Below are positions 31,406-64,000 of a stretch of 64,000 bases of DNA, piece after piece (position 1 is the first letter of the stretch; every line of letters begins with the position of its first letter). The stretch lies in assembly GCA_039111635.1 (NCBI GenBank), contig JBCAQO010000009.1, forward strand, positions 186,001 through 250,000. Reading direction: 5' to 3'. The stretch comes from Heterobasidion occidentale. Lineage: Eukaryota; Basidiomycota; Agaricomycetes; Russulales; Bondarzewiaceae. The position numbers were made by a program, and so were the translations under genes. The notes beneath the pieces were generated by a model, which worked only from the letters and a program-made list of their open reading frames with translations, was not told the DNA's origin and searched no databases.

Positions 31406-31478
31406 AGGCCCTAGGCCGTCGCCCACGAGATCGTGTCTCCGCTGGTCCTGTATATGGCCTGAAAATACCAAGGCCCGT

Positions 31479-32587: not shown

Positions 32588-34249
32588 TCATTGTTCCGGC
32601 CATTGGGCTCTCCTGAGTCGAGTCACCTTTGGGACAAATTCTTTGAGTCGACCTTTCAAGTCTGATTTGCCAATGCCTCCGAAATAGCTTATTCTGGTCA
32701 CTGCAGACAAGCGCTTCGTTCGCGTCTCTCTGCCAGACCCCGGACCAGAAGCTCGCCGAGGAAATCCTTGTTACCAGTCGTGTCGGCGTCGTCGCTGTCC
32801 GAATCGTATATGGTCTGAAATGAATCCAGACGGGCACCCAAGGTAATATAGCGCAGGAGAGGAAGATCGGTGCAGCCACAGCATCGACGGATGAACTGTT
32901 AATCTCTGCCGCGCTGTCGTTTGTGATGGGACCCCCAGCCAACGCGTTTTCCACGAAGGAGAACGAGCTCCTGATGCCTACGTAGATATTTTTGAGGGAA
33001 GGAAGACGTTTCGACAGACTTCGCCAAGCGACGGTAGTAAGCACGGATTCTTCATCTTGAAATAGATACAAGCATGATGCTTTGTCAATGTGAAGAATCC
33101 CCAGTGAAAGATCTAGCCAATCTTGGACCTTCGAATCCGCTACAGTACTTTGCCATCAAGTGAATGTCAACATTCGGCTTTATCTGGGTCATAGACATTG
33201 TTACCGGGAGCGCAAAGCGACAGCACCATCCCTTGATCCTGATCGCGGACCAGGTGAAGTCAACATGTAGGGAGTGAAGAGGCTCGGTGTTAAGAGTGAG
33301 TTTCGGTAGTAAGTCGGTGTCAGAGATAGGTCCAAGATGAACCTTCACATGCTCCATTGTAGGAAGGTCGAGTATGGGAATTAACTTGACCACGGCATGA
33401 CGGTCAATAATCTGGAGGGATCGAAGCCGCGGGAGTGAGATGGGTTGATTCATGAAGGACTCGGGGATGGTAATCAGGGAGTCCTGAAGGTCCAGGGTTT
33501 CGAGCTTTGGCATCCTCTTGAGCGCCTGAAGAAGTTCCTCTGAGACTGACTCAGTATTTTGTGCTCTGTAAGTCATTTTCACCTGCAGGCTGACCAGTGA
33601 TGCAAGGGACATCGCTGTCCAGCTGGGAATAACGTTGGACAAGCGAAGATGCTGAAGACAAGGAGTGTCGCCAATAGATAGATAACATTGCATTCGAGAC
33701 GCAAAGATAATAGTCAGAGACCGAAGAGACGGGGCGCTCTGATTCACGACCAATGGGAAACACGCATGTGAATACGTTAACTCGAGATTGCAGGACCACG
33801 AACGATGTATATTAGCGAGCGCCATCCGTAAAAGTTCGGAGCCATGCGAACTGCCGGATGTATTGATGCTAATCGATATTGGCACCTCCTTCGATCGGCT
33901 CAATTGTATCTCTGAAAATCGAGGGAGCGTCCCGATCTCGCTTGCCCAGAGGCAAGGTTCCTCCAACGCCGCTTGCCTCCAATACCGGCAGACTGAAGTG
34001 ACTGTTAGGTAGGCTGTAAGTCATTTTGCGGAGACGAACATCCAAGGAAGGGCCTACTGCACCTTTGATGAGCTGCTCGAGCGATATGAAGCGAAAACAG
34101 TGTGCTAAGACCTCGGGAGGGAGAACATTGACAGGAGCAAAAGCGTTGTGTTTGACCGAGAACAACTGCTGGAATCGCTTGAGAGCATCTATTTCTCGGC
34201 ATATTTGTGCCTGAGCTCTGTCAGCATGATCCGAAATTTGAAGAGACAT
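32588..34249 (-). pseudogene. F-box/leucine-rich protein, left-arm copy, frameshifted
   Basis: From the ATG at 34249 the first exon gives MSLQISDHADRAQAQICREI, and the F-box start is VNVLPPEVLAHCFRFISLEQ; an intron at about 33,996-34,064 (GTGCAG to CACTTCAG) joins LIK to VCRYWRQAALEEPCLWASEI. A leucine-rich body follows (SLTIIFASRMQCYLSIGDTP; LKRMPKLETLDLQDSLITIP; LRSLQIIDRHAVVKLIPILD). Compared with the right-arm copy it carries a 2-base deletion near 33,167, which ends the frame at 33,085, and a 1-base deletion near 32,859; the expected C-terminus ending AQWPEQ is at 32,588. F-box proteins act as SCF ubiquitin-ligase receptors. A truncated product of about 365 residues with an intact F-box could still be made. 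Confidence 0.8.
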
Positions 34250-34422
34250 AGGAGGTTGATACGATTTTTGAAGATGAGCGGCAAGGAAAGACGACAAAGA
34301 AACACTGTGATTTAGGAACGTGAGTTGAGCTCAAAGGGATTTTGAGCAAGGCATCATTCACCTGCCTGATTGTGAACACGGTTCATCTCCTGGCAGTTGT
34401 GATACTGGTGATACAGATATCT

Positions 34423-34787
34423 TTATCTCTGGAGGACGGCGAGAAGAAACAATTCACCTGTTATGCCCACGGTTCGCCAGTGATGACAGACAGCTGCAGC
34501 TGAGAAGGATGTCAGAAGATAATTGAATTATCGCCGCGGATTGTGAGCATAGTGGCTTACCATGAGCCAGCTCTCTTGTAGACAAAAACGAGAAAATTTG
34601 TTTCAATATTGGAAGTGGGAGGGAAGCAGCGGTGAAAGCATGTTCCGCTTCGCTTTGATTGCTTCGATGATCTGTAAGAGCTCTGACATGTCTCTATCAA
34701 GGTCTTGCACGCATCGCTGGCTGAGACGGCGTTGTCCAATTCGGCAAGTCTGCTATCCAGTAAGGAGAACCACGGCAACGATGACAT
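34423..34787 (-). pseudogene. Tiny F-box gene, left-arm copy, frameshifted
   Basis: Starts MSSLPWFSLLDSRLAELDNA and matches the right-arm tiny F-box gene, but lacks one base near 34,700 (in the ACKIIDRDMSELL region of the other copy) and one near 34,630 (in LSPAASLPLP), so the frame is lost before the F-box. The intron and second exon are still recognisable (VCHHWRTVGITGELF) and the equivalent TAA is at 34,423. Both lesions are inferred from alignment to the other arm. Confidence 0.75.
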
Positions 34788-35603
34788 GGTCCTAACAGGA
34801 ATCATTGGTTCAGATCGATCGTCTGCATACACACGGCGCTTTCGCTCACATGGCTTTTGAGCAGGATGCGCTTGACGATGGCAAGCTGCTGTAGGAGATA
34901 GTGATGAGGGAGGGAGTAGCAAGGTTGGGGTCAGAACGTGTCACCGACGCGGCGTTGAAACTCAATGACGGATGGTTGGCAGTGTTAGGAGTAGAGGTAT
35001 GAGAAGCCCCTTGAATGAATGTATCGCAGGACGACTAGAAAGTGAGAGATTCCGGTGGTATCAAACCAGTCATGAAAGAAGTCAACGAGGTGAAGAGGTA
35101 GAGTCATACTAGAGTCGTGCAGAGTCGGCCAGTGGCGCTGTCTGGCGCTGTCTTCCACCATTCACCACTCATCCACCTCCGTCCACACTATCATCGATCT
35201 CAAATGAACGATCATTTTTCGCTCAAGACGAAGCTCAAGCTCTCAAGCATGGACAATTTTCTCATATTTCCTCATTGAATCCATACATCTCTTCCAGCTA
35301 TAATCTTGCCGACAGCTAGCGACTTCGGAATCCCAACCATGCGTGCAAGACACCAAACGTAGCTGGCCTTTTGGTGTTGCTCGCCGTCGGATCGATTCGG
35401 ACGCAGATGTAGACGCTTGCATATAACACAGGCAATATCTGCAACAAAGAAGCAATGTGAGAAAGCAGCATGATCTCGACGCCATCATAGGAGTGGAGCC
35501 GCGATGGCTGGAGCCATATGGCAGGGAGAACACAGGCAAGATAAAGGCAATACTCGCCTCGTCTTCTTCTCCTTTCGCTGACTATCCACACGCCCTTTAT
35601 CCA
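34788..35603. other. Spacer between tiny F-box and C2H2 genes (left arm)
   Basis: No gene. The part at 35,360-35,600 is strongly conserved with 61,150-61,400 in the other arm although neither is clearly coding; it lies just 3' of the zinc-finger stop and may be 3' UTR. The part at 34,920-35,230 has no obvious partner in the other arm. Confidence 0.5.
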
Positions 35604-36799
35604 TCATCTGCTACCTTCAGTCACATCCGGACGAAAGTGTTGTTCTCGGTGTATGCGGAGAACGTCCGATCGAGTGTATCTTTTCTTGCATATCTCGCAT
35701 CTGAACCTCGGCTTCGCATGCGGGATCGTCGTGGACAAGTGACGCTTCAATGAGTCTGCATCCGAGAAATAGGTCTTGCACTCTTTGCACCTGTGCGTGG
35801 TTGTTTCGACATTGATCCCCGTGCAACCTTGCGTCTGTGCCCAGATTGGCTGTTGGGGGTGATACCCTTGGAATAACGCCTGTACGGCTTCAGGGATGCA
35901 TCCGTTTACGGGGATCTCCCCTTGGATGGGTTTCCTTGATCTGTGGGTTTTATATCCAAGGTATTATCCTCGGAGCTGTAGGTGCCCGCAGGTCCGACTA
36001 CATGTCCCTCTGTGCGGGATGGGATGCCTCGCATTGGTGACTGTGTGGACGCTCCAGCATCGTCGTTGGAACTGAGAAGTTCCAGATGAGGAAGGATCTT
36101 GCGAAACGGTCGTTGAGGCAGCATCCCCCGTCTCCCGTCATCATCGTGCCTCTTGTAACGCTCAGAGGTCTCGGGCGAGTGCATCTCTGTGCAGGGGAAC
36201 TTGGGCATCACGACCATAGCCCCATGTGCGGCAGGGGGCCACAATGGGTAAGGGCCTGCGGCCTGCGGCGACTGCTGCACCTCTACGGCAGTATACCCAG
36301 GGGGTGGGCCTGGAGGGGGTGGGTAGTACGGGCTGACCGATCTGTCTTGCTCTGGCGGTAGCGAATCAGCATTGGCAATGTGAAAGCTGACGAAGGCCAC
36401 TCACCGTGCGCGGAGCCCTGCGCGGATGGCAAACTTCCGTAAACATTCTCCATGGCCGGTCGTATACACGGGTGAGATGACTGCGGATAATGCGTGGCGC
36501 TTTGACTGCCACTGTGCCATCGCAGGGGTGGGATGAGGCCGACTTGGTACCGAATTGAGTGGCGTGGTGTCCACACGGAAATCCTACGAACGGAAACAGG
36601 TAAGCATCTCCCTGAAAATGAAGTGCGACCGTACTACTGTATTGTATTGAAGGGTCAAATGTTGCGTTGTACACATTGTGGCATATTGCGTGCCACCGCT
36701 GGTGGGTATGGTGGCGAAGACGACCTGATGCTCCGGTGGCACAGGCATCCCTTCCTCATAGTATAGCCGAGGAAATTGTGGTTGGTGTGGGTATGACAT
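35604..36799 (-). CDS. C2H2 zinc-finger protein (left arm, readable copy)
   Basis: Probable nuclear DNA-binding protein. The start at 36799 reads MSYPHQPQFPRLYYEEGMPV. An intron near 36,614-36,664 (GTACGG to TTCGTAG) joins LQYNTV to DFRVDTTPLNS; another near 36,349-36,409 (GTGAGT to AGACAG) joins IRAGLRAR to SVSPYYPPPPGPPPGYTAV. The middle is Pro/Gln/Ser-rich. Near the C-terminus are two tandem C2H2 fingers: HRCKECKTYFSDADSLKRHL followed by a second His, and RFRCEICKKRYTRSDVLRIH followed by EQH. The stop is at 35,604. Between about 35,890 and 36,010 the frame must shift once; the responsible intron is not resolved, so the gene is probably, not certainly, intact. The other arm carries a copy deleted for the fingers. 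Confidence 0.7.
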
Positions 36800-36960
36800 G
36801 GCTGTAGATGAAGGAAATTGACGGTGGGGGGTGGCTACCTAGGTGGTGGTTGAAACCCTTCGCGCGCTGTTCTTTTTGGCTTGTAACCGAGTGGACGTAA
36901 CAGTGGCAAAAACACCTGCTTCTCAGGCTTTGCCACAGGACTAAACGGAACAATATGCTC

Positions 36961-38791
36961 CATTTGCGATTGGCTAGTCCTACTGGAAACCTGCGGCAGC
37001 GATGTACGTATATGTGCATCTTTGTATCCTCGCGCGCGAAAAGCAAAATGTCCCCTTAGGACTGAAACAATTCCCGTCGTTATATACACGTTGTTGGTCC
37101 TTTAACCTCATGCTCTGTTCGATATCATCTGTAGCCTTCGGTTCGCCTATCAGATCGTTCTGTGATCATTGGGTCCCACGATTTTGATGTGCATAAGGTG
37201 AGGACATCTTGTGTGCGACTGGCGGTGGTCCTTTTGAAGCTGACAATCATCCCAGGACCTGAAGGCATTCAGGTCATTGTAGGTATTCAAACTTCAAACT
37301 CTACCTCTTTCAACGCTCGGCTGGGATCCAAAGGATCCATCCTCGCTCAAACAGCGCTCTTTTTTGGTTCAATCTGCTGCATGCACCCAGAAATTTACTG
37401 TTGGTTGGCAGAAATGCCCAAGCCACACGATGACAATTCTCTCAAGATGTCAAAAATCGTAGAGATTTGGGTCCTCTCTACTAGACCTGATCCTGGTCAC
37501 GGCAATGCGACGTTTGTTCTTGATTGGAACTGATTTTCCGTCTTGAAGGACTCCTGGTGAGACTGCCGGCGAAACCTGGAAAACAATATCTGCTACTGTT
37601 GGGCACCCTTCATAGCGGCAGAGCTACTCATGAATGTATCGTGATATCTCAAGCCCGGCATCAGACTTCGTCCCTGGCCTAGCATGATGCTATTCATGAT
37701 GTCGAAAGTTTCTTGTGAGATTTCGCCTGTCTAGGTATGATGCATGACGTTTAATGCCATCCTCGTAAAGCATTGGAGAATCTAGAGCTATCTTTTGTGC
37801 TTCATCTCTCCGTTCTGTTCGCCGCTCGAGCCATTTCTCGGCGAGTCGCACGACATCCTTGATAAGGCCCACCAAGAACACAACTTTGCAAACATTCACG
37901 ACAAGGTGTTTGTTGCGTTCCAAAAGGCCGAAGCACGTTTGTTTGATCAACCTCCCGGCGATACCCCATACACAGTGTATCGGTAGCAGGAGGAACCAAG
38001 ACTAATAACAGACAACGTTGGCCTAGGAATGTGCACCCTTTGATCACCACCACCGTCCATTGTTGCCACAGGAGCAACGTCGTTTGTCTCTCTTTCAGCT
38101 TTTGGCCCAAGCTATCAAACGATCTCCTGACCCTCGACCAGCCGCCGACGCTGCACCCGCCATCGAGATAGGGATAGTTCAAATACCTCCTGGAATGACG
38201 ACCGCGACTACCTATCAGAGGATGAGAAATTCACCGGCGGCGGCAGCGACTGCGTTGGCGAAATTCTTTTTATAAGCGCTAGCTGGAAGAAAATGGGGGA
38301 TCGCTTGAAAATTGTCCTCCCTTACATTGCAATTGTACGAGGGCCATAGTGAAACGGTGATGAGCATCTAAATTTGTTTAGGTGGAAATAAAGGTCTGGC
38401 ATTTGACTCTAATGACTCCGAGGCACCCTACTGCCTTCACCTTTGATGACGCCCCGCTCAATGCGGAAGACCTGTTACGTGATACAGCTCACCCGTAGAC
38501 ACCCCCCTCCTATCTCAATAGTCTTGCCCCCCGCACGACAGAAAGACCGGGCCTTGGATGAGCCTTTAATCACTCGGTTTCTGACCGGACACTAGCTACT
38601 CGTACTTACGCCGCCACTGGCATTTTGCTGCGCGGGATATAAATATTTTATTTTTATGATATTTTTTCATTTTCATTTTTAAATGGACTCCGAGGCGCTT
38701 CGGCAGCAGCCGAGGCCCTACATCCAGAAAGTTTGGCCCTTTGGCTGCTCTCAGCTTGATCGATCTGATCAAGGCCATTAATTGTCTGGCC
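36961..38791. other. Interval between left arm and kinase-like gene
   Basis: No recognised gene. Frames of 60-126 codons exist on both strands at 37,162-37,533 and 37,690-38,275 (for example the minus-strand segment MNYPYLDGGCSVGGWSRVRR), but none shows a domain or persuasive splice structure. An A/T-rich tract lies at 38,640-38,690, upstream of the casein-kinase-like start. Confidence 0.4.
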
Positions 38792-40873
38792 ATGTCATTC
38801 AAACTCGGGGATTTGATAGGATCTGGTGGCTATGTGAGTCGTTGACTGCTCCGTCGATTTCTCATCCGCACTCACACATCCCTATTGCCAGGCCCAAGTC
38901 TACCGTGCCCTCGATCCACAGAATACTCCTCTCAACGTCGCCATCAAAAAGTCTCGCGCTTCCACCCGTCTCAGACGCACGCATCTGAAGCACGAGGTGC
39001 GTGTGCTCCATGTTTTGAGAGGGCATCCGGCCATTCCGCGCGTGGTTGCCTATGGTCACTTAGAGCACTTTGAATATCTGGCGCTAGAGCTCCTGGACCA
39101 GTCTCTGGACGATGTGGTGCCAAAGCAGGGGATGGAAGTGAAAATGGTGGCTAGGATCGCGATCCAACTCGTACGTCACCTGAACATCATGATATGAAGA
39201 GCAATTTTCATCCCGCTTCCATCCCTTCCAGCTTTCTGCCCTCGAGTTCGTTCATTCGCACGGGCTTGTACATAGAGACATCAAACCGTCGAACGTCCTT
39301 CTCACACTCGACCAACCGCCGATACTGCGCCTCATCGACTTTGGTATCGCGCGACCCTTTCGCACTGGAATTCCCGCTCGACGCGAGCCCACGTTAGAGA
39401 GGCTGAATATTGCTGGGACACTTGACTGGGCTAGTATCAATGCTCATCTCGGTTATGGTGTGCATCCTACTCTGAACCTTCGTAGCAAACAATATTGACG
39501 ACCCCTAACGCAACAGACAGCTCGCCACGTGATGACATTGAATCCCTCGCATATACTCTACTGTTTCTACTCCGCGGAGGCCTTCCATGGCAGCGATAAA
39601 ATTCCCGCGGCTGCACGCGCTTCGGAGCAATGAAGCAGATAAGGGAGAAGAAAATGAAATGGACCGGGCTCGCGGTTGGGTGAGGGAAAGCCAAAGGAGT
39701 TCGGAGACTTACTAGATTATGCGAGGGCGCTAGGATTCGAGGACAAGCCAGACTATGAGAGACTAAACAAAGGCTTTGAACGACTTGCCGGAGAGTCGAC
39801 AGAGGGTCTCGAATTTTGTGAGTTCACTCTTTCGCCTGCCCTCACCTCCTTCTCCAAGCTAAAATATTGCAGCTTTGGAGAGTCAAATAGCAGCCTGCAC
39901 TTCACCGCTTGTCGAACACTCTCTAGGCCCCGCACCGGTCACTCCCGGAGAACTTGTGTATATGCAGATCCATTCTCGCCTCAGCATTGAGGGTTATACC
40001 GCTCAGGTTACGGACGCCTCCCATTGGGATGACCCATCCTTTTCTGAACCAGAGTGGCAAATGAAGAGGTGGCCTGCGGTCGTGCTGAATGTCAAGGCGC
40101 AGAAGTATTGGTCCGTGATGGTGTTGCCGCTCAGAAAAGGTGCAGTAATAGACGAGACAGAGCAGGATTTGGCGATTCGAGTGTCACCTCAAAGCTACGG
40201 AGGTGACGAGCAGTGGCCATGGAGGAGACGATCGCGTACGCGTGCCCGCTTGTGGAAACTTTTACATGTCTTCCTGACCAAGTGAGCATTTTGTCGCGCG
40301 CTCCCCATAATAGCCATACTGATCTTGAGCCGACATCACCTAGCCCATCATCAGCCGAACACCGTGGTTCCTCTCCGCCGCAGAATGCAAAGCGCTTTTG
40401 CAGCTTTTTTCCCACACGTCCAAATCTAGGCCTCTATCGCCTGCTGATCGACTGAGGATGCACATTCGCACAAGGCGGTTTACCCATTTTTCTCTGTATT
40501 CTCGCCGGTGGTAGATCCCCTCTCTGAAGCAGCGGCCAATGATGTCGCATGGCACGACGAGCGAGGTTGGCTAGACGAGCTCGCGAGAGTCGTGAAGAGG
40601 CGTACCTTGGAAGCTGGATGGGCTTGGTCAAATTGTACGACAGCCGTGGTGGCCGTGCAACAAGATCAGAATATCACGGAGTCGTCGCCCAGCGATAGCA
40701 ATATGGACCCGGACATGACCACGTGGTGGCCGTTGGGCGGGAGGGATGTCTCGGTCACGTTGGACAGCGGGCCCAAGAGGGAACAGGGAACAGGCGAGGA
40801 TGATTTGGATCCAAGTATCGCGCGCATCGACAAAGTCATCCCGCGCGACCGACCTCGGCGTCAGGCATGTTGA
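38792..40873 (+). pseudogene. Casein kinase 1-like protein kinase, damaged
   Basis: The N-terminal two thirds of a Ser/Thr kinase domain are intact. Exon 1 reads MSFKLGDLIGSGGY; an intron (GTGAGT to TTGCCAG) leads to AQVYRALDPQNTPLNVAIKK, with the ATP-binding lysine. Then come RVLHVLRGHPAIPRVVAYGH, LEFVHSHGLVHRDIKPSNVL with the catalytic Asp, and LRLIDFGIARPF with DFG. Two more introns (about 39,171-39,231 and 39,461-39,519) keep the frame to [24 protein letters not shown] follows WQR at 39,597, although the same frame beyond it still reads as kinase (MKQIREKKMKWTG), and an extra base near 39,680 is needed to enter GKPKEFGDLLDYARALGFED. A further frame change near 40,200 precedes the low-similarity tail ending at 40,873. 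CK1-type kinases phosphorylate acidic Ser/Thr sites. Unrecognised introns or sequence errors are the alternative to decay. Confidence 0.65.
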
Positions 40874-41861
40874 AGGCGACCAGGCAGACCTTTGTATGCT
40901 AGCGCGCTAATGCCTCGGTCATGGTACATCGTGTGTTGCGCGCATACTCGATGGTGGTGCTAGATGGCTGTGATAGGGAGCTCAGAACATGCGAGTCTTT
41001 TTTGTGGCTGCTATGCATGTTTTCCTTGATTCATTCTTCTATAGATTCAGAGACCGAGTTGAAGTCTGTGGCACACAGACTTACAGATACAAGAGTCATA
41101 CTCAGGGTGCTGTTTCCTGGGTTGAACGTCGGATCTCGTGAATCGTGTCGTTGTCATAGGTTGCGGGAGGTGCGCTCAAACGACTTATAAGCACATACGT
41201 TGTCATACTTCCTCATGTTTTACTACAGAAAAAAATGCCATCCCAGGCGCTTGTCACGTCAGAGTGAGTTGTTGTTGTTGTTGTTGTTGTAGGGATTCGT
41301 TGAGGTTCAGCAAGGGCTGCATACTCGTGGACACGGACAGCCAACCTTTATTCAACCCACCCACCATTGCATCGCGCCCGTAACTGTTCCAGGCCGATGT
41401 ATGTGCAATTCTTGTCGTGATGATCGGCAAGTGTCTACACACTGTCTACATTTCGCCGCTCGTATCAAAAGCTCGAGGCTGTGAGCCACGTACGTGATAT
41501 CTTCCAACAGGGAATTGGCAGTGGAACGGCCGTAGGCAGAATATGAGCCTTGGCAGCGATAAGGATTGCAAGAGTGTCGGCGAGTTGTGTGCGCAACACC
41601 GAGGCTGCCAAGCCCCGTGAGCGGTTGATCGAAGGCACCGGCGGTCGGATCTGGAGTCCGGATCTAGGTCTGCGAGCGCTTGCCGCCAGTTGCCGCCATC
41701 CGCCGACGCCCAATTCAGTTATCATCACCACCTCCGCCTTTTTTCTTTGTGCCGTCCTCCCTCTTCCCCTCACCCCCCCTCTCTCCTCGTCTTCGTGCAG
41801 GGACATCCCCGTCTGTCCTTTCGACGCCAGTCACTCCCTTCCGAGCCTTTGTACGACGATC
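40874..41861. other. Intergenic region upstream of amino acid transporter
   Basis: Contains a TTG trinucleotide run (about seven units, near 41,270-41,290) and a pyrimidine-rich tract at 41,725-41,800 close to the transporter start, probably part of its core promoter or 5' UTR. No coding frame is supported. Confidence 0.5.
41269..41291. repeat. TTG trinucleotide microsatellite
   Basis: About seven perfect GTT/TTG units on the plus strand in the 5' flank of the amino acid transporter. Confidence 0.8.
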
Positions 41862-44272
41862 ATGGAGAAAAATTTGAGCCCCAGCCCCAGCCCCACTCCC
41901 CCTGCCTACCTCGATGTCGACCACGAAAAGGCCCAGAAGCGCGCCACGATCGACATCGACGTCGACGCTTTTGACCAGGCCACAGGAAGCGGCAACGCCG
42001 ACGAGCATATCAACTACCGCAGCATGGGGTGGATCAAGGCTGGTGCGCTCATCATGGCTGAGGTGCGCATCCTCCCTCTCTTTTTTCTTCTCTTCCTTTG
42101 ATCCCTTCGCTCTGCGGCCGCCAGATCTCGCCAGGGCGCAACTGACATTTCATGGTATCTTTAGACGATTGCGCTTGGGATTCTAAGCTTCCCGTCTATT
42201 TTCCATAGGCTCGGGATGTTTGGAGGGGTGCGTAAATGCGCTTTGTTATTCTGTCTTCGCTCACCGGAAGGTCTTCTTGGCCTATTTCATCTTTACCGTT
42301 CTTCAATGCATGGCGGAATCAGGTCTTCACCACCGTCGCTTTCGCTCTCCTATCATGGCAGACCGGCTATGTCCTCGTCAAATTTAAAATGAACCGTGCG
42401 TCTATCCTCCTTCTATGTTCGTCATCCTTGTTTGCTGACATTCTGTCTCTCCCCGATGCCGACCCTGGCGCTACATCATTCACCCATTCTGCGCACCGCT
42501 GGTTCCACCTACTGATTCTGATTCTCCATCACAACGGCCCTTGTGCGCAGATCCGGGCGTCATGAACTTCGCGGATGCAGGCCAGGTAGTTGCGGGTCGG
42601 TGGGGCTTCTGGGTGTTCGGTACGATGCTCACAGTCAAGGTGCGTACACTTCATCGCATGACTCTATCATTCTCGATGAAACTGATGTGATAATGTGATA
42701 TATATTCTACTTGTTCGTTTACCCCTTCCGCCGGCGTCCCTGACAGTCGGTGTTCATTGCCGGCTCACACGCGCTATCGGGTTCAATTGCGTTGAACAAC
42801 ATTTCGAGCCACGCGATCTGCAACATCGCATGGGCAGTCATCATCGCGTTCATCTCCTTCCTGTACGCCGTTGCACTGCATTTGCGTCATGTAATCTGAC
42901 GCGGTACCTGTGCGCCTTTCTGACAGTCTGACCGTGCCCCGCACGTTCGAGAAAGTGTCCTACATCTCATTCGTGTCGGTCACCGCAATTCTCACAGCGT
43001 GTCTCATCACCATCATCGCGAGCGGTGTCCAGCAGGATGACGACCTGCCTAAGTTTCCGTCCAAGGGCCCCGTCGAATGGCATGCATTCGAGAACCATGG
43101 ACTGACGGACACGATTAACGGTGCGTCTATATGCTTGGGTATATATGTTACTACGACGGGTCGGAGAACTGACCGCGTTTCATTTTTCAGCATTGACGAA
43201 CATCATTTTTGCTTACGGCGGACATGTTGCTATCTTCTCATTTGCGTCCGAAATGCGGAATCCTGCCGATTTCAAGTACTCGCTCGCGCTCGTGCAGACT
43301 GTTGCGACCGTGTTTTAGTGCGTCCTACTCCTTTCTTTTGACATGGAAGTTGTACTGACTCGCGATATTGTTTTTGTGACAAATCAGCATCATCGTCGGC
43401 GCCACGATTTACAAGTTTGGAGGGCAGTACGTCACATCGCCTGCACTGACGATGACGTCCAAGCCCGTGCGCATCACTGCTTAGTACGTTCTTCCCATTC
43501 TGCACGGCGTCCTCTCTCACCATGTTTTCCTTTTTTCACTATCCGCAGCGCCATCGCACTCGTCTCCATCAGTGCGTCCCTTTCTTCTGATGCTGTGCTC
43601 GAGCGAGCAATCTCTGATGATCTTCCGTCCTCCTCGTGTAGTCATCTCGGGCGTCGTTGCATCGTACATCGCCGCCAAGTTTATTTTCCTGACGCTCTTC
43701 CGGGGCACACCGCGTTTGACGTCGCGCTCGCTGCGAACGTGGGGCGTGTGGATCCTGATATGCGCGTGTATCTGGACGGCCGGGTTCATCATCGCCGAGC
43801 TCATTCCGGTGCGTTGGCAGCCTGTTTTCATCTGTGCGCGAGCGTTGTCTTGATATCAGAATTCTCTGCAGTTCTTCTCGGACCTGCTGTCGATCATTTC
43901 GTCAATCTTGACTGTATGGTTCACGTACGGCTTGTCGGGCGTGCTGTGGCTGTACGACCACGGTCCGCGCGGGGGTAAAGGTTACTCAGGGTACTTCAAG
44001 AACAAGAAGACGATCGCGAACTTCATCGTCAGCGTGTTTGTGGTGCGTCCGTGCCATCGATGATATCTGTTTTTGTTGTGTTCATGGTATCGTGATGGTA
44101 GATTGTTATGTCGGCAGCGATCATGGTGCTGGGGATATACTCCTCAATCAAGAGTATCTCGGATAATGTACGTGCTGTTGATGCCTCTTTTCTTTCCTCA
44201 CGCTGAATGTTTGGATTTCCTTAGTACGCTAGTGGCGCATACAGTCACCCCTTCTCGTGCGGCACCCTCTAA
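41862..44272 (+). CDS. AAAP-family amino acid transporter
   Basis: Multi-pass membrane permease of the amino acid/auxin permease family (fungal Mtr/AVT-like branch), expected to move neutral amino acids across the plasma or vacuolar membrane. The ATG at 41862 opens a hydrophilic N-terminus (MEKNLSPSPSPTPPAYLDVD), then INYRSMGWIKAGALIMAE and, after an intron, TIALGILSFPSIFHRLGMFG, the conserved first transmembrane region. Further exons give FTTVAFALLSWQTGYVLVKF, NFADAGQVVAGRWGFWVFG, IAGSHALSGSIALNNISSHA, VEWHAFENHGLTDTINALTN, IIFAYGGHVAIFSFASEMRN, VGATIYKFGGQYVTSPALTM, WILICACIWTAGFIIAELIP and FTYGLSGVLWLYDHGPRGGK. The last exon is short (YASGAYSHPFSCGTL, stop 44,270-44,272). About eleven introns, most GTGCGT/GTACGT-type with a YAG acceptor, are implied. 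No lesion was seen; this gene appears intact between damaged neighbours. Confidence 0.88.
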
Positions 44273-54695: not shown

Positions 54696-55360
54696 CTTCC
54701 TGGACCGCCATTGCACTACTTGAGTGGCAACCATTTGATCCCTTCCATATCATTTTACCTAGTGGAATGATGGCTTCCCCGTGTCTCATCCTCTCTGCAT
54801 CTATCTGTTCTTTCTTTCAACTTGATACCCTGATACCGCTTTCTTGGTCTTGAATTTTCTACTCATCACAAAGTCATGTACTTGCACCTCACCGTTTCCT
54901 TCTTGGGAAATCAGCAATGAAATTTAGCTTCCATTGGATAAAGAAACCGATTTATTCGCACAGACCTCATACACAAGCGCCGATAGCATATTAAAATAGA
55001 AGGGTGATAATGAGATGGTGTGGTCAACAGTTCTCAGAGGTCATGGCCTCAATCTCTTACAAGCTACATCACACTTGCAACACGAAACATCGTAAGGTCC
55101 CCCCCCCCCATTTACTGATGAAGGAGTCCAGCGACAGCGAAGTTCTTGCATCAAGGTGTAGCACAATGTTCAATCCAAAAAAGTTCTTGATACAGCATCG
55201 AATTCTATTGAAACAAAAAGCAACGTGGTATAACGATTACACAGCACAGTGACATGGTAACATGCTCGACAGCATGGCAAAGCTTGGTGATATGGCATAG
55301 CAGAAACGACAGTGCACTTGAAAATTGACCACTCACTCTCAACAGACAGGATGGAGGCCC
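54696..55360. other. Convergent 3' spacer
   Basis: Lies between metacaspase copy 3 (plus) and a kinase-like gene (minus), so it holds two 3' flanks. It includes a short poly-C run near 55,100 and AT-rich sequence at 54,900-55,000. No gene is seen. Confidence 0.5.
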
Positions 55361-57217
55361 TTAGTAAACGAAAGGCTCCATGTTCAGCTCCCCTGTAGCG
55401 CGATATAACTCATCACCCCAGCCCGCGTCGTATTCTGACATTTTATCCTTGGAAGGGTCGTATAACTCGCTTCGCCCAAAATCGATGACACGGTACGAGG
55501 GCGTCTTCATGGAACGCTCTTCCGGAGGTCTTGTTAGCGGACCAGGTTGGACGAGCACATTGCGTTGGTAGAATGAGTTATGTATGTAGTCGTTGATGTG
55601 CAGGCGTCGGAGCATTGAATAACACAATATCCTAGAAGCAAAGCGTGCGAAGGTCAGTCTCGATTGCGGTTTGGTCAAATTCGATTGCCACTTCTTATCG
55701 ACATGGAAATCTTTGCTCGTCACAATAGGAATTCCACAATGCTCCATGAGCAAGATAGGGCTAAGTCGTTCAATGAATGCCTTCATCGCTGCCCTAGCCT
55801 CCTCACTCTCGCTTCTGAACGCTTCCTCATCGAAGACAGGTTTGTAGTATCCGTAAAACTTGGGCACTATAGCGCATGCCGGGACGGGTGTCTTGATCGG
55901 CGGCATCATGTTAAGTCCGCACCAATCCTCCTGAAGATGTTTCGGGAACGATGCATATATGTGAGCCTCATTCTCCAGATGTTCCCGTGCTTCTGAATCT
56001 GGATCTGACATCTTGCAGGCGACGGACACCTCCCCAGTTAGCGTGCATGCAGAAAGTGGTTTGGGTAGTGTCAAAGCAGAGAGATAGACGCTCGAGTGAT
56101 GCCCTACTCCAAGCATGCCGCCGGCAGAGAGACGCATATAGGCCACACGCGGTTCTGTCTGTCTTGACTTTTCGCTTTTGTCATCAAGTGAGGCGGATGT
56201 CGAAGATTCATTACTGGCGTCTGTCAGACAAGCTTAGACGGCTATCAGCGGTAGTATTCGTCTCAGATACTTACCAGTGTCTGTATCAGGGGAGCTCGGC
56301 GTTGGCAAAACACGGTTGAATTTAATCCAGTTCGCCGCAAGAGTGGAACGGACATCAGCATCGAGCGCGGAGTAGGAATTAGCGACCGCCATTTGATCGG
56401 AGCCCTTGACAAGGAGCACATCGGGAAAGTACTGAGGCGGAATGAATTCTTCGAGAGCAGGTGGTGACCGTTTCACTTTGAGAGAATATAGGTTCCGTTT
56501 ATTCGCGCGGTAACTATCGTCATCACTGGGTGATATATTGGTGTTATCAAGATCTATTTCCGATGTAGATTTCAAGGAGTTAGACTAAATAGCCTGATCC
56601 AAAAACAAATTTGATGTTGACTTGCCTGTGCTACCAGGAACATCTTCGAGTGTCGTTGTGCCATCTGTGTTGGGAGTTGTCGACGATCGCTGGTCAGAGG
56701 AGCAAGATATCGAGTAAATTATGATACCTTCGGACTTCGAAACCTCGTCTAAGACCATGGTTGTGCGATACGTATTCGCATTGGCTTCCAGATCTGCTAG
56801 AGTAACAGACTCCTGATCCATATCCTCGTCGGGGTCAATTATGCGCTCGTAGCAGCTGTCATCATAATAACTGCAACCCTCGTCGATAATCCCAAGGTCA
56901 TTTTCAGGCTGCAAATGCTTTGGCATCTTCAACTTCAGCAGTGGCCACGGTCGCATCAGACGCGGCTCCGGCTCCGGATCGTGCTCTTCGTTGGCATAGT
57001 TCTCCCCAAATTCTTGGATCATGCTGCGAGACCAGACTGTCATGACTCTCATCCCGCTCTGACGTTCTATCCAAAAGAAATCGTTGATTGAGTGGCCCCA
57101 GATCATCCCATTCGGTGTCCGTTTTCCGATCGGTGCCTTGCGCTTGTCAAGGAACGGGCCTTTGGGGTCACGGGCCCACTGGTTATATATGAAGATCGTG
57201 GGCTGTTCGGAAGGCAT
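55361..57217 (-). CDS. Fungal protein-kinase-like protein, left member of divergent pair
   Basis: An N-terminal conserved region of unknown role (IFIYNQWARDPKGPFLDKRK, GKRTPNGMIWGHSINDFFWI, VWSRSMIQEFGENYANEEHD) is followed by PPALEEFIPPQYFPDVLLV and a kinase-like domain. The glycine loop is MLGVGHHSSVYLSALTLPKP; the candidate ATP lysine is in VSVACKMSD; then FPKHLQEDWCGLNMMPPIKT, IVPKFYGYYKPVF and LSPILLMEHCGIPI. The catalytic-loop equivalent is DYIHNSFYQRNVLVQPGPLT, where the usual HGD/HRD appears as HNS, and the metal-binding segment is YRVIDFGRSELYD. Two introns (about 56,585-56,634 and 56,219-56,272, both canonical) connect three long exons without lesions. Start at 57217, stop at 55361. 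The loss of the loop aspartate suggests a pseudokinase or altered chemistry; the family is common in mushroom genomes and its function is unknown. Confidence 0.75.
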
Positions 57218-58235
57218 ACATTCGGGAGGAGAGAGAGATTTTCACGAGGAAGTCTGGAGGGAGATGCAAGGTTTGAGTCAAAGACAGGAACGGGAGGTGC
57301 GATCACGTGTGGGCGGCGACTCGAGATGCCCAAATCGGGAGGACGCGTGAATGGCCTTGGATAGTCAGCCGGTGATCCTGTAATGTAGAAAGAGTGCGGG
57401 AAGTCTGCTAATATTGGTCACTGCATATTTCTATCATGAAGATTATGACTTAGAATTCACATTGTATTCTCCACGTAAAGAAGATAATGAAAATGCTCAG
57501 TGACCAAGACACCGACATGTGGGTTCTTGGATATTCAAGTTCCATAATACCAACGTCTCACAGAACGCAGACAGGTAGCATGTCTTCCTAACATCGATAA
57601 GATACAAGGTCATGAAATCATATACGATGCTGAGCATTGGATACTCGGGACATACCTTGCTGGAATCCTGCCACTGAGCACAGTGTACAAGCTCATGATA
57701 ACATGGTATGCAGGCGTCGGTGAGGACAGCAGAGAGGAATTGTGAATCCCTGTAACGGAAGAATACAGTTCTCGCTTGGGCTTATGCCAGCCTATCTAAC
57801 GTGGGTATTATACCACTTGTACCGCGCAAATATTCATTGGCTGACGAACAGGCCATGAAGTCATCAACAGGTAACACACGAACGGGAGATACAGAGCGCA
57901 CCTCTAACAACGAGCTCATAAGCCTGAACGTACTCCGAAGCGTGAATAGATATATTATTGTTCTCACAAGACGACTTGGCTCGAGGGTTACGACATAGTC
58001 GGCGGACATTGAACGAGTTGCCAGATCATGTGGAATCGGCTATCGCCGACATAAGGTTGACGCCTTGTGACGCACGCGTACCGTGATGTGACCATACGCG
58101 TTTTCTCAATAAAGCCTCGAGCTGTAGCAGAGCCACAGACTAAGTCTTGTCTTCGTAGACTTATCACTGCGCCCCTCACATCTATTGACTTGACACATAT
58201 CCTCTCCATTCGTGTTCTTTATATCTCCTTCTTCA
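57218..58235. promoter_or_regulatory. Shared upstream region of the divergent kinase-like pair
   Basis: About 1 kb separates the starts of two head-to-head paralogues, so both promoters should lie here. Short domain-less frames occur on both strands. A pyrimidine-rich stretch at 58,195-58,233 precedes the right-hand start. No symmetrical element linking the two sides was found by eye. Confidence 0.4.
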
Positions 58236-59941
58236 ATGACACAGATCATGAATCAACCAACTCGGTTTGTCTACCAATGGTGGCCGCGCCACCCAAAAGG
58301 CCCGACTCTTCGAAAGGAACACGCGCCTACAGGATACCGAACTCCCAACAGAATCATCTGGGGGCACTCCGTGGGTGATTTCTATTTTATTCAGCGTGTA
58401 CCCAACACGGATGTCGTGACGATCTGGTCGCGAAGCATGATCAAAGAGTTCGGAGAGAATTATGCTAGTGAGGCGTTCGAGATGGAGCCTCACCCACGGA
58501 AACGCAGGCCATGGCCTTTGTTGAAACTTCCCAAGGGACCAACGTTGGATTATCACTATGGTATCCCCGATGAGGGCTCGGAGCATGGAGGCTGCTATGA
58601 GCGGATTGTAGACGATGAAGAAGGAGATCACGCCACAGACAGACCGTTAAAACATAGTCATGAGGACTTGAAGGCTGAGTTGACCGGTATGCATTGATCT
58701 CCGTTCCATTATCAACACGCTTTGATCGTTTTTTATATATAGGTGCTCATGAGGGGGACCACAAAGTTTTGGCGGAGATGCCTCCAGCGTTGGAAGAGTT
58801 CATCCCAAACGAATATCTCCCCGATATACTTCTTGTTGAGGATACTCAAAGGAGAGCGATCAACCTTTCCTACCACGTTCCAGACGGCGAGACGTGCATG
58901 AAGTTGTCCTCAATGCCTTTGAAATACAGGCGGGTTCTTCCTTCCTTTGAAGACCCTGAGAGCACCACAAAGCATCAAGAAGGTCAGTCACATGCCCTGC
59001 TGCAGACGATATACTGCTTCTTTGCGATTTCCTGACTCGAATGTCGTAGATGAAAAGGTAACAACGACGGGAAAAGGACAAAAAGAAGACAAACCTGCGC
59101 GCAAGCTCCGCGTGGCGCGCCTGCGTCTCCAAGCTGAGAATAAGCTTGGTTCCGGCCATCACTCCGATGTCTATCTGGCTCCATTGGAGCTTCCGAAGCC
59201 TCTCACCGCGCGCACGCCGTCTGGTGCAGTTGCTGTTGCGGCGAAGCTAGCTTATCCACGACGTGAGGCACGAACTCTGCTTGAGAACGAGGGCAGCGTC
59301 TACAATGTGTTTCCGCGACACCTGCAGGAAGAGTGGTGCGGGTACAACCTCGTTCCGCCTATCAAACACCCCGTCCCCGTTGGCGCCGTCGTGCCAAAGT
59401 TCTTTGGCTACTATAAGCCGATTTTCGACCCGAATGACCTACATGTTTCAGATGAAATAAAGCAAGAAATGCGCCACTGCATCGAGGGACTCAGCCCGAT
59501 CCTGCTTATGGAATACTGCGGCCAGCCCATCGAATCTAGTGGATTCTCCTACGACGACAAGTCGGTGTCTCCTCTCCTTCGAATTTTAGACTCCGCTGAC
59601 GTCTTCCGATTGTGGCTAGGATGGAATGCTTTTCCCTCCTCCAACGTTTGCACCACGAGGACTTCCTCCAGAACTCATTCTACAAACGTAATATCCTCGT
59701 CCAGCCCGGCCCGCTGACAGTTCCGCCTGTACAGCGTTCAGTCAAGCGGCCCTCATTCCGTATCATCGACTTTGGTCGTACGGAAGACTGGGGCGCCATA
59801 ATCGACAAGGTGAAGCGCGAGAACAGTGCCAAGGATGTTGCTGAGATCCTCGCAATAAAGCGGGACGCGCTCCATTTTGACAAGCAGCACGAGTCCAAAG
59901 GAGCCTGGGAGGAGCTATCAATGGACGATTACAATTATTAG
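58236..59941 (+). pseudogene. Fungal protein-kinase-like protein, right member of divergent pair, probably frameshifted
   Basis: Paralogue of the gene at 55.4-57.2 kb. MTQIMNQPTRFVYQWWPRHP opens the same N-terminal region (GYRTPNRIIWGHSVGDFYFI; VWSRSMIKEFGENYA pattern read as IWSRSMIKEFGENYASEAF). An intron at about 58,690-58,741 leads to MPPALEEFIPNEYLPDILLV, and another at about 58,981-59,050 to the kinase-like part: NKLGSGHHSDVYLAPLELPK, VAVAAKLAYPRREA, FPRHLQEEWCGYNLVPPIKH, LSPILLMEYCGQPI. Near 59,611 the reading frame must shift by one base to reach ARMECFSLLQRLHHEDFLQN, SFYKRNILVQPGPL and FRIIDFGRTEDW, ending at 59,941. The left paralogue has no intron here. An intron starting GTCGGT and ending GGCTAG (about 59,562-59,620) would also restore the frame but would remove a conserved helix. 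The loop reads QNS where active kinases have an HxD-type Asp. Confidence 0.65.
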
Positions 59942-60419
59942 GATGCATGATCAACGGTAACCTACCTCTGATTTTGGTGTGATACGTTTGGATGTTGTAT
60001 TTGCTATCATTTTGCTTTGTTACTGCAGCCAACCGGTAGCGGTCAAGGCTTTGTCGCAGCCGATGGAAATTCTGCACTCGCCAGGACAAGGTATCAGAAT
60101 GCCGTCAAATCGTCCCTTGGCAACATTTAAGTGTCACCGTACCTAGCATGTTGGCTGTAGGAGAATGGTGATAATTTGGTCTGTTAGAAGGATAGCTGCA
60201 GATAAAACCGTACAGGAACTCACATCATTTAGCTATGAGCGAGTCGCCTCGCCCCATACAGTAAATGCATGATGCAAACAACGGCGCTTAGTCCGAGACT
60301 TGACGCTACGTGGGAAGTCATTCCCAGCCATTTCCAACGGCGGCAGTATCGGAAAGAGATGCTAGGACCGTGATAGTGTCTGCGAATGTTAGATTCAAAG
60401 TCCCTTCGAATTCAAGCAG
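59942..60419. other. Spacer between kinase-like gene and right inverted arm
   Basis: About 480 bases containing the 3' flank of the kinase-like gene. No gene is seen, and no similarity to the corresponding side of the left arm (36,961-37,400) was detected by eye, so the duplication's inner edge seems to fall near 60,420. Confidence 0.5.
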
Positions 60420-60572
60420 ACTGTCTCTATTGAGTTCTGTGGCAGAGCCTGAGAAGCAGGCAATCTTGCCATTGTTACGTCCACTCGGCGACAAGCTAAA
60501 CAGAGCTACAGGGAGGGTTTTGACTGCTACCTAAGCCACCACCCCCATCGTCAGCTTCTTTGATCTATAGCC

Positions 60573-61150
60573 ATGACTGCCGCAATTGCCTCGGGTATAC
60601 TGTGAGGAAGGGATGTCTGTGCCACTGGAGCATCAAGCCGTCTTCACCACCGTGCCCACCAGCGGTGGCACGCCATGTGCTACAATGTACACAACGCGAT
60701 ATTCGGCCTTTCAATATAAAACAGCAGTACGGTCGTACTTTGATTTGCAGGGAGATACTTACCTATTTCCATTCGTGGCATTTCTAGGCGGACACCACGC
60801 CACTCGATCCAGTACCAGGAAGATCTCATCCCTCCTATACGATGGCACAGTGGCAGTCAAATCACTCCACGCAATATCTGCAGACGTCTCACCCGTATAC
60901 ACGACCGGCCATAGGGAATGTCTGCGGGGGATTGCCATTCGCGCAGGGCTCCGCGCACGATGAGTGGCCCTCGTCAGTTTTCACATGGCCAATGCTGATT
61001 CACTACGGCCAGGGCTAGATAGACTAGTCAGCCCGTACTACCCACCCCCTCCAGGTCCACCCCTGGGTGCAATGCAAGAAAAGGTACACTCGATCGGACG
61101 TTCTCCGCATACACCGAGAACAGTACCTCCTCCCAGAAGTAACTGAAGGT
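60573..61150 (+). pseudogene. C2H2 zinc-finger gene, right-arm copy, deleted for fingers
   Basis: Matches the left-arm C2H2 gene from its ATG, but an 11-base deletion just after the ATG (near 60,577-60,590) throws the frame into a stop, and a deletion equivalent to left-arm 35,693-36,298 (about 605 bases) fuses SPYYPPPPGPPLG directly to QCKKRYTRSDVLRIHREQY. This removes the first finger completely, the first cysteine of the second finger, and the middle of the protein; the last histidine of the second finger is also changed to tyrosine. No zinc-binding domain remains. Confidence 0.85.
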
Positions 61151-61801
61151 CGCAGATGACGAATAAGGGGGTGGGGATAGTGGGCGAGTGGAGAAGACGC
61201 GGCGACTATTGCTTTTATCTTGCCTGTATTCTCCCTGCCATATAACCCCACGCATGGGACTCCGTTTCATACCATCGCGTCGAGATCGTGCGGCTTTCTC
61301 ACACATTATTGTCCTAGAAATTTCCAGTATTGTATTACAGTGTCCACGTCCACGTCTGCGTCTGAATCGATCCGAGGAGAGCAGAGCAAACAGTCAGCGC
61401 GCTGCGTATTCGGAAGGTACTAGTTGCTAGCGGTGATGAAACTGAGCTGGAAGAGGCGTGAGGGTGTGGTGTGGATGTCTAGTAGACCTGAGCCCTGTTT
61501 CGAGCAAACAGAGTCAGATTGATGATGTTCAACGTGCGTCGTGCGACAATCGCACAGAATAAGTGAGACCGAGCTGAACGCTGTGCGTGGCACGAGCGGG
61601 ACTTATCCGGGCCGGAGACCCTGCCTTCGCAGTTGCCTTCGCAGGTCTTCGCACCTTACCCAGTACAGTCCTTCCCTCACTTTTCACTGCCTCCTACTTC
61701 AGCTTTCGCCATCGTCAAGCCCACCCCACTTGGAAATTGTGAGCGAAAAGCCCCATGTGTACGTAGACAATCGTTCCGAACCAATAATTCCTGTCAGGAC
61801 C
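61151..61801. other. Spacer between C2H2 remnant and tiny F-box gene (right arm)
   Basis: The first 250 bases are conserved with left-arm 35,360-35,600 on the opposite strand; the rest is diverged. Frames here overlap the F-box start but begin in non-conserved sequence. No further gene is supported. Confidence 0.5.
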
Positions 61802-62162
61802 ATGTCATCGTTGCCGTGGTCCTCCCTTATGCATAACCGACTTGCCGAGTTGGACGACGCCGTTCCAGCCAGCGATGCGTGCAAGATTATTGATAGAGAC
61901 ATGTCAGAGCTCTTACAGATCATCGAAGCAATCAGAGCGAAGCGGAACATGCTTTCACCCGCTGCTTCCCTCCCACTTCCAATATTGAAACGAATTTTCT
62001 CGTTTTTGTCTACAAGAGAGCTGGCTCACGGTACGCAACGCTTTGAATCCACAATAACGGTTCAACTACCTTCTAACATCGTTTTCAGCTGCAGCTGTCT
62101 GCCGTCACTGGCGAACCGTGGGCATAACAGGTGAATTGTCTCTTCCCGTCCTCCAGAGATAA
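61802..62162 (+). CDS. Tiny F-box protein, right-arm copy
   Basis: Two exons joined by an intron at 62,031-62,088 (GTACGC to TTTTCAG) encode about 100 residues. MSSLPWSSLMHNRLAELDDA begins a coiled N-terminus typical of agaricomycete F-box proteins, then the F-box: SPAASLPLPILKRIFSFLST, RELAHAAAVCRHWRTVGI. The frame closes after GELSLPVLQR at TAA 62,160-62,162, without the leucine-rich body normal for this family, which is usually several hundred residues. The same stop position is kept in the left arm, so the truncation predates the duplication. It may be a stable F-box-only protein or the stub of an ancestral gene that the downstream F-box/LRR gene now follows. Confidence 0.6.
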
Positions 62163-62335
62163 AGATATCCTTATCACCAGTATCATAATTGTCAGGCGAT
62201 CAACCGTGTTCACAATCGGGCAGGTAAACGATTCCTTGCCCAAAATCCCTCCGAGCTCAACTCACGTTCCTAAATCACAGTGTCTCTTTGTCGTCTTTCC
62301 TTGCTGCTCATTTTCAAAAATCGCATCAACCTCCT

Positions 62336-64000
62336 ATGTCTCTTCAAATTGCGGATCATGCTGATAGGGTTCAGGCACAAATAGGTCGAGAAATAGATGA
62401 TCTCAAGCGATTCCAGCAGGTGTTCTCGATCAAGTATAACGCTTTTACTCCTGTCAATGTTCTCCCCCCCGAGGTCTTGGCACACTGTTTTTGCTTCATA
62501 TCGCTCGAGCAGCTCATCAAAGGTGCAGTAGGCCCTTCCTTGGATGTTCGTCTCCGCAAAATGACTTACAACCTACCTAACAGTCACTTCAGTCTGCCGG
62601 TATTGGAGGCAGGTGGCGTCGGAGGAACCCTGCCTCTGGGCAAGCGAGATCGGGACGCTCCCTCGATTTTCAGAGATACAATTGAGTCGATCGAAGGAGG
62701 TGCCAATATCAACCAGCATTAATACATCCGGCAGTTCGCATGGCTCTGAACTATTAAGAATGGCGCTCGCTAATATACATCGTTCGTGGTCCTGCAATCT
62801 AGAGTTAGCGTATTCACATGCGTGGAAAACATTGGTCGTGAATCAGAGAGCGGCCTTGCTTCGATCTCTAACTGTCATCTCTACGTCTCTGATACCCCTT
62901 CATCTATCTATTGGCGACACCCCCTGTCTTCAGCACCTTCGCTTATCCGACGTTATCCCCAGTTGGACGACGATGTCTTTGGCAACGCTGGTCACCCTGC
63001 AGGTGTAAACGACTTACAGAGGAGAAAACAGCAGATCCGTCTCAAAGAAATTGCTTCGGGCGCTCAAGAGGATGCCAAAGCTCGAACAACTTGATATCCA
63101 GAACTCCCTGGGCGCCATCCCCAAGTCCTTCATGAATGAATCGATTTCACTTCCGGGGCTTCGATCACTCCAGATCGTTGACTGTCATGCCACGGCCAAA
63201 TTAATACCCATTCTCGACCTCCCTCCAATGGAGCGCGTGAGGGTTCAGTTTGGACTTCTGTCTGGGACCGACTTGCTACTAAATTTCACTATAAACACAA
63301 AACCTCTTCGTTCCCTGCATGTTGACTTCACCTGCTCCGCGATCAGGATCAAGGGATGGTGTCATGACTTTACATTCCCGATACACATGTCTATGACCAA
63401 GGAAAAGCCGACTATTGACGTCCGCTTGCAATGGCCGAGCACTGCGGCGAATCAACTGATGGCCCGAGAAAGGCTTGGTCTCGCGCTGGAGACCCTTCAC
63501 GTTAGTAAAGCTTCATGCTTATATCTAGTTCAAGATGGGAAATCCGTGCTAAATGCCGTCCCTTGGCGAAGCCTGTCGGAACGTCTTCCTTCCCTCAAAA
63601 AAGTCTACATAGGTATCAAAAGCTCGTACTCCTTCGTAGAAAATGCGTTGGCTGGGGGTGCCATCACAAATGACAGGGCGTCAGAGGTTAACAGTTCATC
63701 CGTCAATGCTGTGGCCGCACCAATCTTCCCTAGCTTGCGTCATGTTACCCTGGGTGCCCGTCTAAATTCATTCCAGATCTCATACGAAGCGGACAACGAC
63801 GACGCCGACAAGACTGATAACAAGGATAGTCTCGGAGAACTTCTGATCCGGCGTCTAGCAGAAAGACACGAACGAGGCGGCTTGTCTGCACTGATTAACA
63901 TAAGCCATTTCGGTGGCATAGGCAATTCAGACCTGCAAAGTCGACTCGAAGAATTTGTCCCGACTGTGACTCGACTCAAGAGAGCCCAATGGCCGGAACA
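62336..64000 (+). pseudogene. F-box/leucine-rich protein, right-arm copy, nonsense-mutated, 3' end cut by window
   Basis: The ATG at 62336 gives MSLQIADHADRVQAQIGREI and the F-box VNVLPPEVLAHCFCFISLEQ; the intron at about 62,535-62,591 joins LIK to VCRYWRQVASEEPCLWASEI. The body follows the left-arm copy closely but a TAA at 63,006-63,008 replaces the codon that is AAA in the left copy. Past the stop the frame stays open to the window end (LQIVDCHATAKLIPILDLPP; VDFTCSAIRIKGWC; GIKSSYSFVENALAGGAITN; LEEFVPTVTRLKRAQWPE), including the regions where the left copy is frameshifted. So a single base change separates this copy from an open frame of about 535 residues. It could be a recent null allele or a sequencing error. 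Confidence 0.75.

What the first reader, a model, noticed from the sequence alone, without database searches (positions are those of the whole stretch)
32588..64000. Large inverted duplication enclosing a 23 kb accessory locus
A block of about 4.4 kb (C2H2 gene, tiny F-box, F-box/LRR) occurs at 32.6-37.0 kb on the minus strand and at 60.4-64.0 kb on the plus strand, with the same order and many conserved non-coding stretches. The inner edges are about 23.5 kb apart. The arms have diverged, so this is an old inverted segmental duplication and not an assembly echo. Such a structure can promote inversion of the enclosed region by recombination between arms.
Basis: seen in the sequence. Interest (0 to 1): 0.75.

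Follow-up and report, generated by a model that had tools for sequence, protein, structure and literature searches.

The report
Old, decaying inverted gene duplication
A block of about four to five thousand bases with three regulatory-type genes was copied in mirror orientation 23,000 bases away on one chromosome of what looks like a mushroom-type fungus; most of the gene copies are now damaged, and this looks like ordinary genome evolution, not a working DNA switch.

Summary
The inverted repeat is real. Arm A is window 32123-36980 (-), arm B 60395-64322 (+), ending 322 bases past the window; inner edges are 23.4 kb apart. Identity is about 85% in the main block and 78-80% in two inner pieces. 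A spacer no longer aligns and arm B lacks 601 bp of the C2H2 gene. A DNA search with 32588-37000 found only the two arms in the 45 Mb assembly. In a large F-box/LRR family (54 matches, a lower bound) the arms are 75% alike, the other 52 at most 38%. Two putative introns are kept, so DNA, not mRNA, was copied. Four of six gene copies look broken. Two stretches of the F-box genes (140 and 218 bp) are 97-98% identical; permutation says this clustering is not chance, and one duplicate pair of similar divergence about 285 kb apart lacks it. I read this as patchy gene conversion, with selection as the main rival. Nothing shows that the enclosed 23 kb inverts; repeats at reported Candida albicans inversions have median identity 98.3%. 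New member of a known kind; low interest.

The parts
32123..36980 (-). Arm A of the inverted duplication (4.86 kb)
   Evidence: blastn and alignment
60395..64000 (+). Arm B of the inverted duplication; continues to window-equivalent 64322 (contig C9:250322), 3.93 kb in all
35607..36800 (-). C2H2 zinc-finger gene in arm A (two fingers in frame 35607-35963; whole gene not modelled, ends approximate)
   Evidence: Pfam zf-C2H2 E=3e-9; 28 matches in the genome incl. itself
60590..61160 (+). C2H2 gene remnant in arm B, 601 bp missing at 61063; of the zinc-finger exon only the last 29 residues still match
   Evidence: gap list; match at C9:247070-247156 (query 91-119)
34560..34790 (-). Short F-box-like gene, arm A, first exon with two 1-nt gaps relative to arm B (34701, 34633)
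   Evidence: no Pfam F-box match to 34560-34940, label is by eye
61802..62160 (+). Short F-box-like gene, arm B, open frame of about 100 aa in two exons around an intron 62031-62088 (model by eye)
   Evidence: no Pfam match to 61526-62131
32700..34249 (-). F-box/LRR gene, arm A; frame closes early after a 2-nt gap at 33157 (371-aa model); further 1-nt gaps at 32859 and 32713; 5' of the RNA is at 34249, low end approximate
   Evidence: LRR PF25019 E=8.8e-7, F-box-like E=0.0052 (below cut-off); gaps; model
62336..64000 (+). F-box/LRR gene, arm B; in-frame TAA at 63006-63008, otherwise open to a TGA at window-equivalent 64002
   Evidence: F-box-like E=5.2e-4 (below cut-off); 1 TAA
61890..62030 (+). 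High-identity tract 1 (3 differences in 140 aligned sites), starts inside an exon
   Evidence: 3 of 139 to 62029
62493..62710 (+). High-identity tract 2 (6 differences in 218 aligned sites), holds the longest identical run (78 bp, 62493-62570) and a putative intron
36981..60394 (.). Enclosed 23.4 kb
38838..40900 (+). Protein kinase gene inside the enclosed segment (ends approximate)
   Evidence: Pkinase E=8.5e-13 for 39193-39495, over cut-off
47314..54100 (+). Three tandem metacaspase-like genes (DxCHSG-type exons in frames starting 47314, 50977, 53496); name rests on a recalled motif and one weak hit
   Evidence: motif seen; caspase domain E=0.0011, below cut-off, for 52570-52878; no Pfam match to the three motif exons; 47.3/51.0 exons 62-68% alike; 47.3/53.6 DNA 77% over 62
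55113..57324 (-). Orphan gene K1 ('kinase-like' by eye only); 86% DNA copy K3 at C9:526527-528767
   Evidence: no Pfam match
58194..59938 (+). Orphan gene K2, inverted older paralogue of K1 (about 50% aa)
   Evidence: no Pfam match, no PDB match for 59037-59582

Best explanation
A DNA-level segmental duplication put a block of about 5 kb (C2H2 gene, short F-box-like gene, F-box/LRR gene) at a second place 23 kb away in inverted orientation in one fungal lineage (two copies shown; a single event is inferred). The copies then diverged to about 80% identity over most of their length, and four of the six gene copies took apparently disabling changes (shown in this assembly: frameshifts, one stop, one 601-bp deletion). 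Meanwhile short ectopic gene-conversion events re-homogenised two stretches of the F-box genes (inferred from clustered identity at third-codon and intron sites). The arms have no demonstrated role and look like by-products of turnover in a large F-box family. Inversion of the enclosed segment is mechanically possible, but it is not shown and is probably rare at this divergence.
For: Inverted arms in collinear order. DNA search with 32588-37000 found only the two arms (it skips simple repeats and very common words). 75% aa between the arms versus 22-38% for the other 52 of 54 matches. Two putative introns at the same places in both arms. Lesions. dS 0.43, 0.41 and 0.33 in 62701-63005, 63009-63428 and 63456-63731, against 0.11 in 62574-62700 (only about 30 silent sites) and 0.20 in exon 1, 62336-62521. 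Clustering over 586 third-codon and intron sites: a run of 62 identical sites, 1 of 5000 shuffles as long; least diverged windows of 60, 90 and 120 sites, 0 of 5000 each. Over all 2638 sites the 100/150/200-column windows were matched by 1, 0 and 0 of 2000 shuffles and the 78-bp run by 3 of 2000 (1 of 2000). The K1/K3 pair (12.7% divergence against 15.0%, about 285 kb apart) shows no clustering: 625, 752 and 365 of 2000, run 362 of 2000.
Against: The putative intron 62031-62088 lies between near-identical exons (3 of 140 and 3 of 60 differences) yet differs at 19 of 58 sites, which fits exon constraint better than one continuous tract. dN/dS is below 1 (0.20-0.52), so selection acted for at least part of the history. 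No dS was computed for tract 1, and the control is a single pair. Without a relative the direction, number and date of events are unknown. The lesions rest on one assembly without reads and on gene models made by eye.
Confidence: 0.65

Rival explanations
1. The same old inverted duplication, but the near-identical stretches reflect purifying selection on the F-box parts (and perhaps splicing signals), not gene conversion.
For: dN/dS 0.20-0.33 upstream of 63005 against 0.51-0.52 downstream; the intron 62031-62088 is diverged between conserved exons.
Against: dS in 62574-62700 is 3-4 fold below that downstream, though on about 30 silent sites; a 49-bp putative intron inside tract 2 has 1 difference; the short F-box gene in arm A is frameshifted yet nearly identical; tract 1 starts in the middle of an exon (13 of 87 sites differ before 61890, 3 of 140 after).
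Confidence: 0.25
2. The arms act as a recombination pair that flips the enclosed 23 kb, giving two orientations in the population, perhaps changing expression of edge genes.
For: Inverted geometry and 23 kb spacing lie within the range given for inversions between inverted repeats in Candida albicans (4.1-102.6 kb for 9 cases, 7 of them only predicted; passages of PMC6591007); two tracts of 140 and 218 bp at 97-98% and a 78-bp identical run.
Against: Overall identity is 78-85% against a median of 98.3% in that study; the DNA search with arm A found no third copy that could be a second haplotype; no strains available here.
Confidence: 0.06
3. Assembly artefact: an alternative haplotype or misjoined contig placed in reverse.
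For: No reads were available to check.
Against: 395 of 2638 sites differ in the main block and 38 gaps separate the arms; similarity stops at all four edges; no N in 134 kb; only two copies found.
Confidence: 0.03
4. The block is a mobile element or was carried by one, inserted twice.
For: Two copies with definable ends; another duplication on the same contig (K1/K3).
Against: No further copy found; no transposase-like domain in the seven arm frames scanned (four of arm A, three of arm B); no terminal repeats evident by eye at the four edges (not tested systematically).
Confidence: 0.04

Closest known systems
Long inverted repeats with ORFs in Candida albicans (PMC6591007, passages seen)
   Same: Inverted duplicates with ORFs on one chromosome, kilobase arms, tens of kilobases between them
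   Different: Those at the nine reported inversions have a median identity of 98.3% and some inversions were examined by PCR and sequencing; here the arms are 78-85% identical and no inversion is shown
Ectopic gene conversion among paralogues in one region in Aspergillus flavus/oryzae (PMC12844118, abstract and outline seen)
   Same: Partial conversion between linked paralogues, together with stop codons and deletions
   Different: That case rests on two species; here only one genome, so conversion is inferred from within-pair clustering
Expanded F-box/LRR families of Agaricomycetes (recalled; searches gave listings, no paper on this was read)
   Same: Large family (54 matches) with duplicates and relics
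   Different: Nothing apparent; the organism itself was not identified by any search

Membership tests
Inverted segmental duplication | Two copies of multi-kilobase DNA in opposite orientation on one chromosome, with intergenic sequence and introns included | tested here: met
   (introns are models by eye)
Inverted segmental duplication | Not a dispersed high-copy repeat | tested here: met
   only the two arms matched 32588-37000
Paralogues with gene conversion | Clustered identity at third-codon/intron sites beyond uniform divergence | tested here: met
   single control pair K1/K3 negative; the diverged intron 62031-62088 speaks against a simple tract
Paralogues with gene conversion | Within-species similarity exceeding orthologue similarity | not testable with these tools
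   no relatives held for this genome (note)
Invertible segment driven by inverted repeats | Both orientations found among strains or haplotypes | not testable with these tools
   one assembly only; no third copy of the arm in it
Invertible segment driven by inverted repeats | Nearly identical arms | tested here: not met
   78-85% overall, two tracts of 97-98%
F-box/LRR protein genes | F-box and leucine-rich repeats | tested here: inconclusive
   LRR model over its cut-off in arm A; F-box-like below cut-off in both arms; the genome search with PF00646 listed 16 places, none on this contig (the F-box here is split by a putative intron)

The most novel reading that the evidence does not exclude
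The 32-64 kb stretch is a recombination-prone, cell-death-related accessory locus: three tandem metacaspase-like genes, orphan gene duplicates and F-box genes held between inverted arms that exchange sequence by gene conversion and occasionally flip, keeping alternative haplotypes for recognition of self and non-self.
Probability: 0.03. Interest if true: 0.6.

Novelty: new member of a known kind. Interest (0 to 1): 0.2.

Why it matters
As it stands it is a clean small example of how a large fungal gene family turns over: an inverted duplicate of several genes, unequal decay of the copies, and apparent patchy conversion next to a duplicate pair of similar divergence that shows none. It would matter more only if population data showed that the enclosed segment flips or is absent in some strains.

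Tried and rejected
Mobile-element origin: held unlikely, no further copy found. One-sided RIP-like mutation: the 395 differences in the main block are 271 transitions and 124 transversions, balanced in both directions (arm A/arm B: G/A 76, A/G 65, C/T 63, T/C 67), so no one-sided C-to-T signature. Co-duplication of the orphan genes with the arms: the protein-level self-comparison showed no K-like match beside arm A's inner edge, so the inner inverted K1/K2 pair is taken as a separate, older event. Arms near the distant K3 copy: none in the 40 kb fetched around it. Telomere: (TTAGGG)4 has no exact match in the assembly, which says nothing either way. Protein search with the arm A F-box/LRR frame gave 1 hit at E<=1e-5 among 1205 candidates (28% identity), so no name or species clue. 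PDB search with a K2 frame gave nothing at E<=1. Papers: seven searches were seen as listings only; of PMC6591007 passages were seen, of PMC12844118 the abstract and outline. None of the titles listed in those seven searches is about this locus. The labels 'metacaspase-like', 'kinase-like' (K1-K3) and 'mushroom-type fungus' rest on recalled motifs and family knowledge, not on a firm call; the PF00656 search of the genome (9 matches) and the PF00646 search (16 matches) list no place on this contig.

Full report
What is there. The window is contig C9:186001-250000 of a 45.05 Mb, 159-contig assembly with no relatives held. Self-comparison shows one strong inverted pair. With flanking sequence added, the pair runs from 32123-36980 (minus) to 60395-64322 (plus), the last 322 bases lying outside the window. 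Order and orientation mirror each other: C2H2 gene, short F-box-like gene, F-box/LRR gene, reading outward from the enclosed segment. Identity is 84.6% in the main block and 78-80% in the two inner pieces. The arms are interrupted by 601 bp missing from B and by a spacer with no similarity that BLAST detects.

Copy number and age. A DNA search with 32588-37000 matched only the two arms in the assembly. The F-box/LRR frame has 54 protein-level matches, a lower bound; the other arm is 75% identical and the remaining 52 are 22-38%. So the arms are a private pair within a large family. Silent divergence downstream of the high-identity tracts is 0.33-0.43, an old event; no rate is available to give years.

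State of the genes. Arm A: the two-finger C2H2 frame is open (whole gene not modelled), the short F-box gene has two 1-nt gaps, and the F-box/LRR frame closes early after a 2-nt gap. Arm B: the C2H2 gene lacks its middle, the short F-box gene is open, and the F-box/LRR frame has one in-frame TAA at 63006. Four of six gene copies thus look broken. These are readings of one assembly and could be affected by sequencing error or unrecognised introns.

Gene conversion. Differences are not spread evenly: 3 of 140 sites in 61890-62030 and 6 of 218 in 62493-62710, but 34 of 332 in 62161-62492, 242 of 1284 in 62711-64001 and 43 of 214 in 61673-61889. In 62574-62700 dS is 0.11 on about 30 silent sites, against 0.33-0.43 downstream; exon 1 (62336-62521) is 0.20. 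A 49-bp putative intron in tract 2 has 1 difference. Shuffles reached the observed clustering in 0 to 1 of 5000 (586 third-codon and intron sites) and 0 to 3 of 2000 (2638 sites). As a control, the K1/K3 pair at about 285 kb distance with 12.7% divergence showed none (365 to 752 of 2000 for windows, 362 of 2000 for the run); it is one pair only. Against a simple reading, a putative intron between two conserved exons differs at 19 of 58 sites. I take patchy conversion as more likely than selection alone, between 2 and 3 to 1.

Enclosed and flanking content. Inside are a protein kinase gene (E=8.5e-13), a weak LtrA-like membrane frame (E=0.0074, below cut-off), three tandem exons with a metacaspase-like DxCHSG motif (motif recalled, seen; a caspase-domain hit at E=0.0011, below cut-off; no Pfam match to the three exons), and two orphan genes in inverted orientation (about 50% aa). 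I call these kinase-like by eye only: the K1 and K2 frames scanned match no Pfam model. Their family shows three places in the genome, all on this contig. K1 has an 86% identical copy about 285 kb away in the same orientation. Apart from that and four short matches (38-117 bp) around 38.4-38.7 kb to other contigs, DNA searches of the enclosed segment found no further copies. Outside arm B lie a BTB-like frame (E=9.4e-4, slightly below cut-off) and ribosomal protein eL8 (E=3.5e-41 to a solved chain), so the duplication sits near a core gene.

Does it flip? Homologous recombination between inverted arms would invert the enclosed segment. In Candida albicans nine inversions (two examined by the authors, seven predicted) of 4.1-102.6 kb had breakpoints in long inverted repeats, 8 of 9 in repeats with ORFs, median identity 98.3% (PMC6591007, passages). 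Here only short tracts reach 97-98%. The same tracts, if they are conversion tracts, show that the arms have exchanged sequence in the past, but conversion does not require crossover. No evidence for a second orientation was obtained, and none could be with one genome.

Verdict. The interpretation as an old inverted duplication holds; its suggested consequence is untested and unlikely to be frequent. The finding is an ordinary product of gene-family turnover with one modestly interesting detail, the apparent conversion tracts.

Noticed in passing
window 26000-31500: A GC-rich island (61-76% per 500 bp, against about 50% further out) near arm A's outer edge, with long overlapping frames on both strands and a 27-bp tandem repeat at 26504-26632; the minus frame 26622-28325 holds an HMG-box-like stretch by eye but no Pfam match.
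   Followed up: partly
window 55113-57324 and contig C9:526527-528767: Orphan gene K1 with an 86% copy (K3) about 285 kb away on the same contig; the three places found in this genome are all on this contig. K1 and K2 frames match no Pfam model; K3 was not scanned.
   Followed up: partly
window 55364-57241 and 58194-59938: A second, older inverted duplicate pair (K1/K2, about 50% aa) lies inside the enclosed segment beside arm B.
   Followed up: partly
window 47314-54100: Three tandem metacaspase-like exons on the plus strand with a DxCHSG-type motif; Pfam support is weak.
   Followed up: partly
window 38436-38657: Short dispersed repeat: 117 bp at 93% on C2:280252-280368, and shorter matches on C4 and C7.
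   Followed up: no
window 62571: The putative acceptor of the F-box/LRR intron reads AA in arm B and AG in arm A; an in-frame AG lies 12 bases downstream in both.
   Followed up: no
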